A DNA stretch of 64,000 nucleotides, taken from NCBI RefSeq assembly GCF_004322705.1, contig NZ_SIZZ01000001.1, positions 682,001 through 746,000 on the forward strand. The letters are read 5' to 3'. This document shows positions 1,293 to 15,211 of the stretch, one piece after another. Below the pieces are notes generated by a model, which did no database searches, was not told the origin of the DNA, and saw only the letters and a list, made by a program, of their open reading frames with translations. Position numbers and translations under genes: made by a program. Position 1 is the stretch's first letter; every line of letters starts with the position of its first letter. The DNA is from Dyella terrae (GTDB taxonomy: Bacteria > Pseudomonadota > Gammaproteobacteria > Xanthomonadales > Rhodanobacteraceae).

Positions 1293-1325
1293 TATTGGTG
1301 GAGGTGGCGGGAGTCGAACCCGCGT
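1293..1325. repeat. Left att core (33-bp direct repeat)
   Basis: Identical over 33 bp to 15179-15211. The two copies differ on both sides: A versus G just before the core, TGTTT versus CCGAA just after it. The core is the last part of the tmRNA gene, including the T-arm region and CCA, plus 3 bp beyond. The ssrA 3' end is a well-known integration target for tyrosine recombinases. Confidence 0.92.
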
Positions 1326-1377
1326 TGTTTGAGCTACAGCAAAGGCTGAAGCCAGTCGCTTGACCGAAAGTTGACCG

Positions 1378-1605
1378 TCAGTCTTCGAAGATGACGCGGC
1401 CCTGACCCGCAGCTCCAATCTGGCGCAGGTCGAGCGTCGGTCTAGTCGCCATCCCTGTGAATATCAATCTTGCATCGCCACCTACAGCCGCCGCTGCGAT
1501 CTGACGAAGCTCGGCCGTCGATCTGGTTCCAGCTGCGAGACGGAATCCACCTCCTGCCGCTGCGATCTGGCGAAGCTCATCGGTCGTGCGAGTTGCAAAA
1601 CTCAT
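1378..1605 (-). CDS. Small repeat protein (three ELRQIAAAG repeats), unknown function
   Basis: 75 residues with an ATG at 1605 and a strong ribosome site (AAGGAGA) lying inside the end of the integrase gene, one base upstream. The protein is three imperfect repeats of about 25 residues, each built on RTT-x-ELRQIAAAG followed by a short hydrophobic strand (FRLAAG, ARLIFTG, GRVIFED). There is no cysteine, signal peptide or membrane segment. It is the last gene of the leftward operon and ends 53 bp from the att core. It could be a regulator, an anti-defence protein or an integration accessory factor, but the sequence does not decide. I recognise no named family. Confidence 0.65.
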   Translation of the reverse strand: MSFATRTTDELRQIAAAGGGFRLAAGTRSTAELRQIAAAAVGGDARLIFTGMATRPTLDLRQIGAAGQGRVIFED

Positions 1606-1606
1606 T

Positions 1607-2776
1607 TCACGTCTCTCCTTGGTTGTGGTGGTTCTGTCCAGTTAGCCAGACAGCTGCCACCTTCTGACCAGCGTCCGGGGCAACGGAGGGTATCCATCGG
1701 CCATACGTGCGGACGATCATGGTCCAATCCTTGTGACCCATCATAGATGCCACCCACACGGGGTTCTCGCCGGCGCTGAGCAGCGTCGATGCGAAGGTGT
1801 GGCGCATTTGATATGGGTACCTGTACCGCACGCCCGCACGCTTGAGGGTGGGCTGCCACGCAGTCTTGCGTATTGGCCCGTCGTGAAGCCACGGTCCGCC
1901 CGTTCGCGGATTTGTAAAAACTTCTTCGCCGGCCAATTGAGTGTGCTGGCGCTGGGCCCGGATGGCGTCCAGGGCAGGCTGCAGCAGTTGCATAGTGCGT
2001 CGGCCGGCTTTGGTCTTGGGGGCCTTCACTTGTTTCCGGACCTTCGCGCGCCTCACGGTGATCGTGCCGCCGTCCAGGTCCACGTCTTCCCATCGGAGCG
2101 CAATAAGCTCACTGGTGCGAAGGCCCGTCCAGAATCCAAACTGGAACAGGTTTCGAACCTGGCCGTCACATGACTCCAGAATAGCCGCGACCTCGGATGG
2201 GCCAAACGGATCGACATCGTCCGTTTCTTTGGGTGGTTCGATCTTGCGGGGCGTCCACCCGACGAAAGGATTCACATTGATTTGCTGATCGTCCAATGCC
2301 TGGGCGTACAAGCCCCGCAATGGAAGCAGTAGGTTTCGAATGCGCTTGATGCCGCAGGATCGTTCAGCAACCCACGCCTTCAGGTCTGCGCGAGTCAGCT
2401 CGGTCAAGCGTCGAGTTCCAAAGGCGGGCACCCACACTCGCTGGATGGCCAGGTCGTAGTCCCTGAAAGTGGAATGTTCGATCTGGCCCTTCATTCCCTT
2501 CAGCCAAGTCTCAAGGGCGGGGCCCAAGGTGATGGCCGCGCCGGGTACCTTGCTGAGGGTGAGCGCGCGCTTGCTATCCGGGAAGAACTTCGCGTACTCA
2601 AAAGTCCCGCGGGCAATTTCGGCCTGGATCTGGGCCCGCAAGTTGGCCGCGAACTTCTGATTTGCCGACGTTGGGGCGAGCTTCAGCCGTTCGCGGCAGC
2701 GGACACCGCGGTAATAGAAATCGAGCGTGATGCTGCCTTTCGTTGCAGCTCGAACACCTGCCTGCCTTCCACCCAT
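1607..2776 (-). CDS. int: Tyrosine recombinase / integrase
   Basis: 389 residues. Residues 10-70 look like the Arm-DNA-binding domain DUF3596 (SITLDFYYRGVRCRERLKL, FPDS). A core-binding SAM-like domain covers about 85-165. The catalytic domain has R220 (WTGLRTSELIALRW), R325 in YQMRHTFAS, H348 in MMGHKDW and nucleophile Y358 in RTYGRW. The usual first histidine of the HxxRH box is Y322 here, as in several phage integrases. It presumably recombines the ssrA 3' end with the attP core. The start (ATG 2776) lies inside xis, a 94-bp overlap; I keep it because the Arm domain needs this N-terminus. It sits next to the left att site, as expected. Confidence 0.95.
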   Translation of the reverse strand: MGGRQAGVRAATKGSITLDFYYRGVRCRERLKLAPTSANQKFAANLRAQIQAEIARGTFEYAKFFPDSKRALTLSKVPGAAITLGPALETWLKGMKGQIEHSTFRDYDLAIQRVWVPAFGTRRLTELTRADLKAWVAERSCGIKRIRNLLLPLRGLYAQALDDQQINVNPFVGWTPRKIEPPKETDDVDPFGPSEVAAILESCDGQVRNLFQFGFWTGLRTSELIALRWEDVDLDGGTITVRRAKVRKQVKAPKTKAGRRTMQLLQPALDAIRAQRQHTQLAGEEVFTNPRTGGPWLHDGPIRKTAWQPTLKRAGVRYRYPYQMRHTFASTLLSAGENPVWVASMMGHKDWTMIVRTYGRWIPSVAPDAGQKVAAVWLTGQNHHNQGET

Positions 2777-2931
2777 AGCCCATAGCCCTCCGTGTCGATC
2801 AAGACCCGCCCGTCAGGCGCTTTCGTCCAGACGATTCCTTCGAGCCACACCCCTGTCTTGATCTTGGCCCGGACAGCATCTTCGGTATACCCCGAATCCG
2901 CTGCGAACTTGCCGATGGTCAGATATCGCAT
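2683..2931 (-). CDS. xis: Putative excisionase
   Basis: 82 residues starting MRYLTIGKFAADSGYTEDAV, with RAKIKTGVWLEG and an aromatic/acidic stretch (IDTEGYGLWVEG). This resembles the winged-helix phage excisionases of the DUF1233 type. The ATG at 2931 overlaps the primase stop (TGATG), so translation is probably coupled. The last 31 codons overlap int in another frame. The basic C-terminal tail (QRKAASRS) is encoded in that overlap. Likely role: bending att DNA to direct Int to excision. The family assignment rests on the N-terminal motif only. Confidence 0.8.
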   Translation of the reverse strand: MRYLTIGKFAADSGYTEDAVRAKIKTGVWLEGIVWTKAPDGRVLIDTEGYGLWVEGRQVFELQRKAASRSISITAVSAAANG

Positions 2932-14458: not shown

Positions 14459-14532
14459 AGAAGTTCCTTCGGCAAACGGAGGTGGCCCGTCGCGCCAGCA
14501 TTTGCGGACGCTACGAGCCACCATCTGCACAG

Positions 14533-14877
14533 TTACACGCAGTCCCCGATTCTATGGGCGGAAATCCACAGCTTCATGTGCGGCTGCCCAACTATCGTAG
14601 CCACGCCATCAAGTGCGTCGTCGTCGTGAAAATCCCCGGCAAAATCCAAGAGATAGTTATCGATGCCGGGGAACACAGACGCAAGTTTTGCGCTCCATTT
14701 CGACACTTGAATCTGTCCTGTTACGTGGCCCGCGTCATACGTCAGCGTGGCGCGATAAATGTAGCCTTCGTCGCCGCCATTCATCGCACCGTCTTTGATC
14801 GTAACTATGCCGCTACCGTGGTCGTCCACTTTCGTCGAGTTCTGGTAGAACGTGACCTCATAGATTCCGTCGCGCAT
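14533..14877 (-). CDS. GrlR-like protein
   Basis: 114 residues from the ATG at 14877 (GGGAGAA upstream). The pattern MRDGIYEVTFYQNS...GSGIVTIKDGAMNGGDEGYI... then QIQVSKWSAKLASVFPGIDN fits the GrlR beta-barrel family (E. coli GrlR binds GrlA and represses the LEE type III secretion genes): an opening 'MxDGIYxVxF', 'GGDxGYxYxGT' and 'SVFxxxDNxxLD'. Outside LEE, GrlR-like genes occur alone in genomic islands. No GrlA partner is seen here. As a lone cargo gene it may act on a host regulator; this is inference. Confidence 0.75.
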   Translation of the reverse strand: MRDGIYEVTFYQNSTKVDDHGSGIVTIKDGAMNGGDEGYIYRATLTYDAGHVTGQIQVSKWSAKLASVFPGIDNYLLDFAGDFHDDDALDGVATIVGQPHMKLWISAHRIGDCV

Positions 14878-15136
14878 GGATTTCTCCCCCTGGGTGAACT
14901 GCTGCAGAGGATGCACTGTTGAACGATGGCGTGTGAAGTCCACGGGATCACCCCATGCTGCGGCGCTCGTGTCCATAGATCATCCGGCGCTGCTTTTGGG
15001 GAAGTTGCCGTTGCGCTAGGTCACCGGACTTTTTGGAGCTCAGCGGGTTCCAGTGGCCCAGGCTCCAAAATACCGTTCGAAATGCTGCCCAAAAGTTGAC
15101 CAAACGGGGACCAAAACAGACCATTCCAGACCAACC

Positions 15137-15176
15137 AAAGAAAAAGGCCTGTAAGCGAATCAATCACTTACAGGCC
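15137..15176 (-). terminator. Element-supplied terminator for ssrA
   Basis: 10-bp stem GGCCTGTAAG (15146-15155) with CTTACAGGCC (15167-15176) and an 11-nt loop. On the minus strand it is followed by five T then CTTT (15145-15137). It is just inside the element, 5 bp from the tmRNA 3' end, so it terminates ssrA in the integrated state, replacing the host terminator displaced to 1255-1289. Confidence 0.88.
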
Positions 15177-15178
15177 CG

Positions 15179-15211
15179 TATTGGTGGAGGTGGCGGGAGT
15201 CGAACCCGCGT
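15179..15211. repeat. Right att core (33-bp direct repeat) in ssrA
   Basis: Matches 1293-1325 exactly. It covers the last 30 nt of the tmRNA gene (15182-15211) plus 3 bp downstream. The element thus rebuilds the full tmRNA 3' end on integration. Confidence 0.92.

What the first reader, a model, noticed from the sequence alone, without database searches (positions are those of the whole stretch)
1293..15211. Phage satellite-like element in ssrA that carries an ejection-protein module but no capsid genes
Seen: att repeats of 33 bp, integrase, excisionase, AlpA, PrimPol-helicase, iteron region, small terminase, scaffold-like protein, then four to six podovirus-type internal virion genes. Not seen: large terminase, portal, capsid, tail, lysis. 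All frames are intact and many are coupled by ATGA overlaps, which argues against a decaying remnant. Known satellites (P4, PICI, cf-PICI) carry packaging or capsid-remodelling genes; an element that supplies its own DNA-ejection proteins to a helper podovirus would be a new type of parasitism, since it could alter genome delivery or host range.
Basis: partly seen in the sequence, partly recalled or inferred. Interest (0 to 1): 0.85.

Follow-up and report, generated by a model that had tools for sequence, protein, structure and literature searches.

The report
Phage parasite with own DNA-delivery proteins
A 14-kb piece of DNA that appears to hitch-hike inside the particles of a short-tailed bacterial virus seems to bring some of the virus's own particle parts with it, and six more elements of the same build each carry a different set of such parts.

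Summary
Window 1293-15211 is an intact 13.9-kb element in ssrA (33-bp att) with integrase, excisionase, PrimPol, two AlpA genes and a small terminase (TerS). It also carries virion genes of epsilon15-like podoviruses: full-length gp17-type (876 aa), gp14-type and gp10-position proteins. No terL, portal, capsid, nozzle or lysis gene was found.

It is not a lone remnant. Seven such elements (13.2-14.8 kb) lie in 233 genomes of one family (Rhodanobacteraceae) at ssrA, tRNA-Thr or tRNA-Ser. All lack detectable terL, portal and capsid; each has a different subset of gp10-position, gp14, gp16, gp17 and tailspike genes.

New evidence points to the helper group: (1) TerS is chimeric (N-domain 18%, C-tail 44% identical to phage TerS); (2) a cos-like site of about 105 bp after terS is shared with podovirus contigs, where it lies between terS and terL; (3) gp17 genes of satellites and phages interleave (one satellite clade: p-AU 2.6e-70), while two satellite-only genes, one scaffold-like, are common to all seven.

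Best reading: PICI-like podovirus satellites that build chimeric virions. No function was tested; gp17's ejection role is itself inferred. Nearest precedent: PLE chimeric tails.

The parts
1293..1325 (.). attL, 33-bp copy of the ssrA 3' end
   Evidence: exact repeat of 15179-15211; in 5 of 5 other genomes of the genus ssrA is present and no DNA like the element was found in the about 1.5 kb fetched beyond it
1378..1605 (-). 75-aa protein with repeated ELRQIA motifs
   Evidence: phrog_27431 1.1e-20
1607..2776 (-). tyrosine integrase
   Evidence: Pfam PF00589 3.7e-18, PF12167 1.4e-23; not close to the tRNA-Thr integrases of the sister elements
2683..2928 (-). excisionase
   Evidence: phrog_9668 2.2e-20
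2931..5066 (-). PrimPol with helicase-like domain (replication)
   Evidence: PF09250 7.6e-33, PF19263 2e-21; related to PrimPols of the sister elements (the G097 copy is linked through others) and of 3 of 5 podovirus contigs (best 50%); the phage copies form their own clade
5063..5395 (-). small protein, also in the G207 element
   Evidence: 47% to G207_03; no convincing family match
5392..5991 (-). unknown 199-aa protein in the replication operon
   Evidence: no match
5988..6230 (-). AlpA-type regulator/excisionase
   Evidence: PF05930 1.8e-7 (longer ORF from 6266); homologues in other elements
6704..6919 (.). iteron-like 9-bp repeats in direct and inverted order, probable origin
   Evidence: a similar layout with a different unit in the G110 element
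7415..7612 (+). second AlpA/HTH regulator
   Evidence: PF12728 8.1e-10; 47% to a phage alpA beside PrimPol
7833..8474 (+). satA: 213-aa satellite-only protein, perhaps coiled-coil (by eye)
   Evidence: family linked across all 7 elements by BLASTP E<=1e-3 (tblastn links 6 of 7, not the window copy); 0 of 5 related phages; no match in 50,697 phage records at E<=1e-3
8471..9034 (+). satB: scaffold-like protein, possible capsid-size redirector
   Evidence: family in 7 of 7 elements; C-terminus like epsilon15/phiV10 gp6 (E 0.009/0.004); phrog_458 hit for the window copy (2.1e-3) and the G064 copy (1e-3) but not for the G110 and G207 copies; hhalign with phage gp6 P 45.7%, E 2e-4; no match in the phages collection
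9039..9566 (+). chimeric small terminase: satellite N-domain, phage-type C-tail (C-tail about 9363-9563)
   Evidence: satellite-phage identity 18% N-domain, 44% C-tail; C-tail 24 of 24 pairs with BLAST E<=0.01, N-domain 2 of 24; TerS family hits; no match in the phages collection
9584..9693 (.). cos-like packaging site shared with podovirus contigs
   Evidence: 72-75% over 105-119 bp to two phages; core pattern at 9651-9665 occurs once in this genome; an 18-base form occurs in 4 viral contigs, all phages of this group
9876..10196 (+). small virion-like protein in the position of epsilon15 gp10
   Evidence: 65% over 83 aa to an ORF just before gp11 in phage contig G870; a gp10-position protein of one of two sequence types is in 4 of 7 elements
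10203..10844 (+). internal virion protein, gp14-type
   Evidence: phrog_418 6.5e-18; 37% to phage contigs L008 and L025
10871..11200 (+). unknown 109-aa ORF in the virion module
   Evidence: weak hits only
11197..11487 (+). unknown 96-aa ORF coupled to the next gene
   Evidence: no homologue found (searches scanned the longer ORF 11014-11487)
11484..14114 (+). 876-aa virion protein, epsilon15 gp17-type (probable ejection/pilot protein)
   Evidence: phrog_684 3.5e-187; 74% to phage contig G870, 71% to the G110 element; annotated 'virion structural protein' in epsilon15 and 'pilot protein' in one phage record (H36); dN/dS 0.17-0.18 in the two satellite-satellite pairs
14111..14458 (-). accessory protein, homologue in the G207 element
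   Evidence: 30% to G207_05; no Pfam or PADLOC match
14533..14976 (-). GrlR-like accessory protein
   Evidence: PF16518 1.8e-7, phrog_2483 3.3e-16
15179..15211 (.). attR, at the 3' end of ssrA (tmRNA 15182-15576 -)

Best explanation
The element is one of a family of cos-type, PICI-like phage satellites of Rhodanobacteraceae that parasitise temperate epsilon15-like podoviruses.

Shown at sequence level: it is integrated in ssrA; it has its own integration and replication genes; its TerS joins a satellite-type N-domain to a phage-type C-tail; it carries a site very like one that lies between terS and terL in podovirus contigs; no terL, portal, capsid, nozzle or lysis gene was found in it; it carries intact, constrained virion genes that elements of this family share with phages of that group.

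Inferred: on infection by a helper podovirus it excises and replicates from its iteron origin. The helper's TerL, recruited by the chimeric TerS through its C-tail, cuts and packages the element at the shared site. SatB, with satA, acts as an alternative scaffold and gives a small head, since 14 kb is about one third of the helper genome. The element's gp17-type, gp14-type and gp10-position proteins replace or join the helper's in its particles, so that DNA delivery into the next cell runs partly on satellite-encoded parts. Sister elements replace other parts (gp16, tailspike).
For: Seven elements of 13,167-14,802 bp (mean 14,048, sd 646) with att repeats of 15-53 bp at ssrA, tRNA-Thr (5) and tRNA-Ser. 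0 of 7 show terL, portal, gp6, MCP, gp8, gp11, gp12, gp13 or gp15, and 0 of 7 the lysis-type gene; the panel finds the first nine in 5 of 5 phage contigs (partly by construction, as it was drawn from them) and the last in 4 of 5. Virion genes: gp10-position 4 of 7, gp14 2, gp16 3, gp17 5 (one short), tailspike 2. SatA and satB in 7 of 7 elements, 0 of 5 phages. TerS chimera. TerS tail type and gp17 type point to the same phage group in 4 of 4 elements that have both, though for the window the tail margin is small (46% against 41-44%). Cos-like site: (21 of 28 satellite-phage pairs score above the best of 1,120 letter shuffles; a control stretch 200-370 nt downstream, 24 pairs, is at chance). 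gp17 exchanged with phages: AU p 2.6e-70. Purifying selection: NG86 dN/dS 0.13-0.34 in pairs with a satellite. ssrA without the element in 5 of 5 congeners. Ejection proteins are required for infectivity in podoviruses (PMC8954989, passages), and PLE satellites do build chimeric tails (PMC12987554).
Against: No excision, induction, packaging or transduction was observed. A terL profile of this phage group found nothing in the 7 host genomes (no positive control was run with it), so the helper is inferred from metagenomic contigs whose hosts are unknown. No satellite-like contig was seen in the viral contigs checked (37 loci; the 68 loci were not followed), so packaged satellite DNA has not been seen. 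gp17 is annotated only as a virion structural protein in epsilon15; its ejection role is inferred. The scaffold role of satB rests on weak matches (2 of 4 copies tested hit phrog_458); structure prediction could not be run. Seven of 28 satellite-phage cos pairs are not above the shuffle maximum. In G170, gp17 is cut to 106 aa and TerS to a C-tail-only ORF, as decay would give. dS is near 1 in several pairs, so dN/dS is rough.
Confidence: 0.72

Rival explanations
1. Interference: the element is a satellite, but its ejection and tailspike proteins serve to spoil helper particles or block superinfection (dominant-negative mixing) rather than to deliver its own DNA.
For: Satellites commonly interfere with helpers (PMC6092414, passages), and a PLE protein blocks helper tail assembly (PMC12987554). 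Cargo varies between elements, as interference genes do.
Against: gp17 is full length in 4 of 5 elements that have it and constrained like the phage copies; a poison could be truncated. Each element's gp17 matches the phage group indicated by its TerS tail, which fits building with that helper's parts. Both roles could coexist.
Confidence: 0.14
2. Deleted prophage: a 40-kb epsilon15-like prophage lost terL through tail genes and the rest is a stable remnant.
For: The order TerS-cos-gp10-gp14-gp17 in the window is colinear with the phages, PrimPol is of the same family, and G170 shows truncated gp17 and TerS.
Against: Seven elements of near one size with satellite-only satA and satB and, in six, a TerS with a different N-domain. 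G110 has tailspike before gp17, opposite to the phages. One origin for satellite gp17 is rejected. Intact frames, dN/dS 0.13-0.34 in satellite pairs. Phage origin of an ancestor is not excluded.
Confidence: 0.07
3. Passengers: the element is a working satellite, and the virion genes are recombination leftovers from the shared cos region with no role.
For: In most elements the virion genes lie just 3' of the shared cos, a plausible exchange point, and they vary from element to element.
Against: Only 5 of 14 phage virion or packaging classes recur across 7 elements; a rough, post hoc chance is 1.4e-4 and it treats the genes as independent draws. Most frames are intact and gp17 is constrained.
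Confidence: 0.07

Closest known systems
Gram-negative PICIs (Fillol-Salom et al. 2018, PMC6092414; passages)
   Same: Size, int - replication - AlpA layout, terS/packaging block, no terL found, att at a fixed site.
   Different: Their listed criteria include absence of phage structural genes (though one of their PICIs, PmCI172, has a major capsid protein homologue); this element has at least two virion genes of other kinds. Gene-by-gene relation to PICI genes was not tested.
PLEs of Vibrio cholerae, chimeric tails (PMC12987554; passages)
   Same: A satellite encodes its own version of virion parts used for delivery (there TMP, TAC, BhuB) and builds with helper parts.
   Different: PLEs parasitise ICP1 and alter a long contractile tail. 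Here the helper is a podovirus and the parts are gp14/gp16/gp17-type proteins, a gp10-position protein and tailspikes; chimeric particles are not shown. The paper adds that satellites outside Vibrio also have predicted tmp genes.
Mulch and Flayer satellites of Streptomyces (PMC10690885; abstract)
   Same: Satellites that encode virion proteins.
   Different: They encode encapsidation machinery and lack replication genes; here it is the other way round apart from a few parts.
SaPI1-type capsid redirection, CpmA/CpmB (PMC6893505; passages)
   Same: Adjacent gene pair, one with a C-terminus like a phage scaffold; genome about one third of the helper's.
   Different: No sequence relation shown; capsid size not tested.
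EcCIMP1, a PICI mobilised by phage Kapi1 (PMC11773190; passages)
   Same: PICI with two AlpA genes; the helper is named vB_EcoP_Kapi1 (podovirus by its name and by recall).
   Different: The words tailspike and ejection do not occur in its main text.
Epsilon15/phiV10-like podoviruses (Uetakevirus) and related IMG/VR contigs of 25-42 kb
   Same: Source family of gp14, gp16, gp17 and tailspike; the contigs also share the TerS C-tail, the cos-like site and (3 of 5) PrimPol.
   Different: Phages with terL, portal and capsid; satA and satB not found in 5 of 5 contigs.

Membership tests
PICI (criteria of PMC6092414) | Integrase, replication module and master regulator in conserved order | tested here: met
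   by kind of gene, not by homology to named PICIs
PICI (criteria of PMC6092414) | Size about 12-15 kb | tested here: met
   13,886 bp; family 13.2-14.8 kb
PICI (criteria of PMC6092414) | Attachment site never occupied by prophages | not tested
   site shown without the element in 5 of 5 congeners only
[quoted passage not shown]
   full-length gp17- and gp14-type virion genes; no lytic gene found
PICI (criteria of PMC6092414) | Phage-dependent induction and specific packaging | not testable with these tools
   needs experiment; TerS chimera and cos-like site are indirect signs
cf-PICI | Encodes its own capsid and packaging set (recalled) | tested here: not met
   no MCP, portal or terL found
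P4-like satellite | P4 core genes such as Sid and Psu (recalled) | tested here: inconclusive
   none named among the Pfam/PHROG hits; no P4 profile was run on purpose
Uetakevirus-like prophage | terL, portal, MCP, tail nozzle genes | tested here: not met
   found in 0 of 7 elements
PLE | Relation to PLE genes and ICP1 helper | not tested
   compared by published passages only

The most novel reading that the evidence does not exclude
A family of satellites specialises in remaking the delivery end of podovirus particles. Each lineage takes a different set of ejection proteins, tailspike and a gp10-position protein from its helper group and builds chimeric short-tailed virions, so that packaging is tied to the helper (TerS tail, cos) while entry into the next cell is partly the satellite's own and can be swapped. 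As far as my nine searches show, these would be the first satellites known to encode podovirus ejection proteins and tailspikes.
Probability: 0.58. Interest if true: 0.87.

Novelty: new variant of a known kind. Interest (0 to 1): 0.8.

Why it matters
Well-characterised satellites with double-stranded DNA take their tails from the helper; the PLE paper of 2026 calls PLEs the first family known to mix in their own tail parts (PMC12987554). If the elements found here supply ejection proteins and tailspikes, satellites can also shape how and where a short-tailed virion delivers DNA. The varied part replacements across seven elements are natural swap experiments on which podovirus virion proteins must be matched to each other. 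The TerS domain chimera with a shared cos-like site also gives a sequence test for pairing satellites with helpers.

Tried and rejected
Rejected: lone decayed prophage; cf-PICI (no capsid found). A resident helper was not found in the host genomes (terL profile, 0 of 7; no positive control was run with that profile).

Led nowhere: genome-contig scan with the window gp17 alone (no relative; the alignment version, named two hosts). PrimPol scan gave 37 loci; none showed satA or satB, and four matched about 40 residues of the TerS N-part only. TerS hits beyond the known elements: of 7 other genomes, three were read in context (G116, G267, G401), four were not (G255, G276, G396, G474); G042 was also read. 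G042 has TerS next to an ORF that looks like TerL by eye, G401 and G116 look like other prophages by eye, G267 is an island with TerS but none of the family's other late genes. PrimPol hits G192, G186, G095 lack the other genes; G214 was not read. Distant gp17 hits G499, G595, G606 were compared only in short loci. G144 is a gp17 fragment only. hhalign of satB with phage gp6 was weak. PADLOC gave nothing for the five window proteins given. The 14.3-kb record KM389434 is an unverified contig without annotation; nothing was drawn from it. A plasmid search with the Frateuria locus gave only short, scattered matches.

Literature: nine searches in an open-access library without bioRxiv; result lists were capped (30 of 282, 25 of 59, 15 of 90, 15 of 29, 20 of 114, 9 of 9; three searches found nothing). 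No title or abstract start listed showed a satellite with ejection proteins or a tailspike. Seen: listings and abstract starts; passages of PMC11773190, PMC6092414, PMC6893505, PMC12987554, PMC7290940, PMC8954989 and PMC13216270; abstract and outline of PMC10690885.
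Full report
OBSERVATION. The element at 1293-15211 is real and intact. A 33-bp exact repeat bounds it, the right copy being the 3' end of the tmRNA gene. In 5 of 5 other genomes of the genus ssrA is present and no DNA like the element was found in the about 1.5 kb fetched beyond it, so this is an insertion. Profile scans give integrase, excisionase, PrimPol, AlpA genes, TerS, a gp14-type internal virion protein and an 876-aa protein that matches phrog_684 along its whole length at 3.5e-187. 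No large terminase, portal, capsid, nozzle or lysis gene was found.

WHAT THE VIRION GENES ARE. In the phages collection the 876-aa protein hits 60 records, all under 60% identity (40 listed); the best listed are epsilon15/phiV10-like phages at about 30%, where it is gp17. It is annotated as a virion structural protein in epsilon15 and as a pilot protein in one listed record (H36); that it is an ejection protein is inferred. Much closer relatives lie in IMG/VR contigs: 74% (G870), 63% (G874), 52-53% (G871-G873). These contigs (25-42 kb) show terL - portal - gp6 - MCP - gp11 - gp12 - gp14 - gp15 - gp16 - gp17 - tailspike, TerS before terL in 4 of 5 (G873 starts inside terL), and a related PrimPol in 3 of 5. 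The small protein 9876-10196 is 65% identical over 83 aa to an ORF just before gp11 in G870, the place of gp10 in epsilon15.

A FAMILY OF ELEMENTS. Searches of the same 233 genomes of the family with gp17, PrimPol and TerS, followed by reading the loci, gave seven elements: the window; G110, G064 (Dyella ginsengisoli LA-4), G097 (Frateuria terrea; names, both Rhodanobacteraceae), G088 and G207 at tRNA-Thr; G170 at tRNA-Ser. Repeats for the six others, in the order G110, G064, G097, G088, G207, G170, are 53, 46, 46, 45, 17 and 15 bp; the last two are weak as boundaries. Unit lengths are 13,167-14,802 bp. All have an integrase, a PrimPol, a satA-satB pair and a TerS position. The five tRNA-Thr integrases are 62-73% identical; those of the window and G170 are of other kinds. 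In G170 the TerS place holds only a C-tail ORF. satA and satB are found in 0 of 5 phages, and the window copies have no match in 50,697 phage records at E <= 1e-3. satA is divergent: BLASTP links all seven, tblastn links six and misses the window copy.

CARGO. Presence by tblastn with BLASTP: window gp10-position + gp14 + gp17; G110 gp10-position + tailspike + gp17 (1,096 aa, with an insert); G064 gp16 + gp17; G097 gp17; G088 tailspike; G170 gp10-position + gp14 + gp16 + a 106-aa gp17 start; G207 gp10-position (another sequence type) + gp16. The two tailspikes have a podovirus N-terminus and a pectate-lyase-type body. terL, portal, gp6, MCP, gp8, gp11, gp12, gp13 and gp15 are found in 0 of 7 elements and 5 of 5 phages; the panel came from these phages, so the phage figure is partly by construction. 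Holin and endolysin queries from epsilon15 hit nothing anywhere and are uninformative.

WHICH HELPER. Three signs. First, TerS: between six satellites and four phages the part before the REK/DK motif is 18% identical on average, the part after it 44%; within each group the two parts are 45-56%. BLAST at E <= 0.01 joins 24 of 24 pairs by the tail and 2 of 24 by the N-domain. The window and G110 tails are nearest to G870 (46% and 48%; the window's next values are 44, 42 and 41%), the G064, G097, G088 and G207 tails to G871/G872 (48-56% against 28-42%). Second, gp17: the window and G110 group with G870, G064 and G097 with G871-G873; so tail and gp17 agree in 4 of 4 elements that have both. Third, a non-coding stretch of about 105 bp directly after terS is shared by satellites and phages: 88% over 85 bp between G110 and G870; 21 of 28 pairs score above the best of 1,120 letter shuffles and 7 do not; a control stretch further downstream (24 pairs, G170 not included) is at chance. 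In the phages it lies between terS and terL. Its core pattern occurs once in the 4.2-Mb host genome, in the element, and its reversed control not at all. An 18-base form occurs in 4 viral contigs of the IMG/VR collection, all phages of this group with the site between TerS and terL; two of the four were already known, and the pattern misses G871 and G874, so it is a strict form. I take the stretch as a cos site; cutting was not shown.

HISTORY. A tree in which the four long satellite gp17 genes form one clade is rejected (lnL difference 582, p-AU 2.6e-70); the tree holds three long-branched distant phages. In the PrimPol tree the three phages form a clade and the seven satellites lie on the other side of one branch; the root is not known. 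So the core is stable and gp17 moved between satellites and phages more than once. dN/dS is 0.17-0.18 in the two satellite-satellite pairs and 0.13-0.34 in six satellite-phage pairs, against 0.06-0.41 in three phage-phage pairs, with dS near saturation in several.

MECHANISM. Shown: anatomy, kinship, constraint, shared site. Inferred: helper-induced excision; replication from the iteron region; packaging by helper TerL through the chimeric TerS; small heads through satB, whose C-terminus resembles epsilon15 gp6 and of which 2 of 4 copies tested hit phrog_458 at about 1e-3, though hhalign is weak; and use of satellite gp17, gp14 and the gp10-position protein in the satellite's own particles. 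The size ratio (14 kb to contigs of 40.6 and 42.3 kb, which may be incomplete) is like the one-third capsid volume given for SaPI1 (PMC7290940, passages). Satellite gp17 is not shortened (856-1,096 aa against 852-880 aa in the near phages), so it is not simply trimmed to fit a small head.

COMPARISON. It works like a PICI but fails the published criterion of no structural genes (PMC6092414; the same paper allows a PICI with a capsid protein homologue). The nearest precedent for satellite-encoded virion parts in otherwise helper-built particles is the PLE chimeric tail (PMC12987554); its authors call PLEs the first such family and mention predicted tmp genes in satellites elsewhere. The nine literature searches listed no satellite with ejection proteins or tailspikes; lists were capped and the library lacks preprints and most subscription journals.

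LIMITS. No experiment; hosts of the phage contigs unknown; one genome per species searched; no packaged satellite seen in the viral contigs checked; gene calls in the other elements come from my own simple caller; structure prediction could not be run.

Noticed in passing
G170 element, L055 (about 610-800): TerS is reduced to an ORF holding only the phage-type C-tail, just before the cos-like site. It may be decay or a TerL-binding decoy.
   Followed up: partly
G110 element, L011:797-4087 (-): The gp17 protein has an insert of about 220 aa (1,096 aa in all) absent from the other four copies aligned.
   Followed up: no
L054:16335-17249 (G170) and L015:6638-7072 (G097): Accessory genes with AbiJ-type and SocA/Panacea domains, possibly anti-phage cargo of sister elements.
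   Followed up: partly
window 1378-1605 (-): 75-aa protein with three copies of an ELRQIA-type repeat, phrog_27431; DNA repeats D1.
   Followed up: no
window 15714-16157 (+): A 147-aa ORF sits between ssrA and the smpB-like gene (16158-16646 -); it looks like a GNAT acetyltransferase. Both names are by eye; no family search was run.
   Followed up: no
window 15140-15178 and 1255-1292: Both ends carry a terminator-like hairpin next to the att copy (by eye, sequence), so the element may give ssrA a new terminator while the old one stays at the far end.
   Followed up: no
L190 (G267): A small island beside tRNA-Gln with a TerS-like gene, an integrase and large ORFs that look ATPase-like by eye, without satA, satB or the virion genes.
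   Followed up: no
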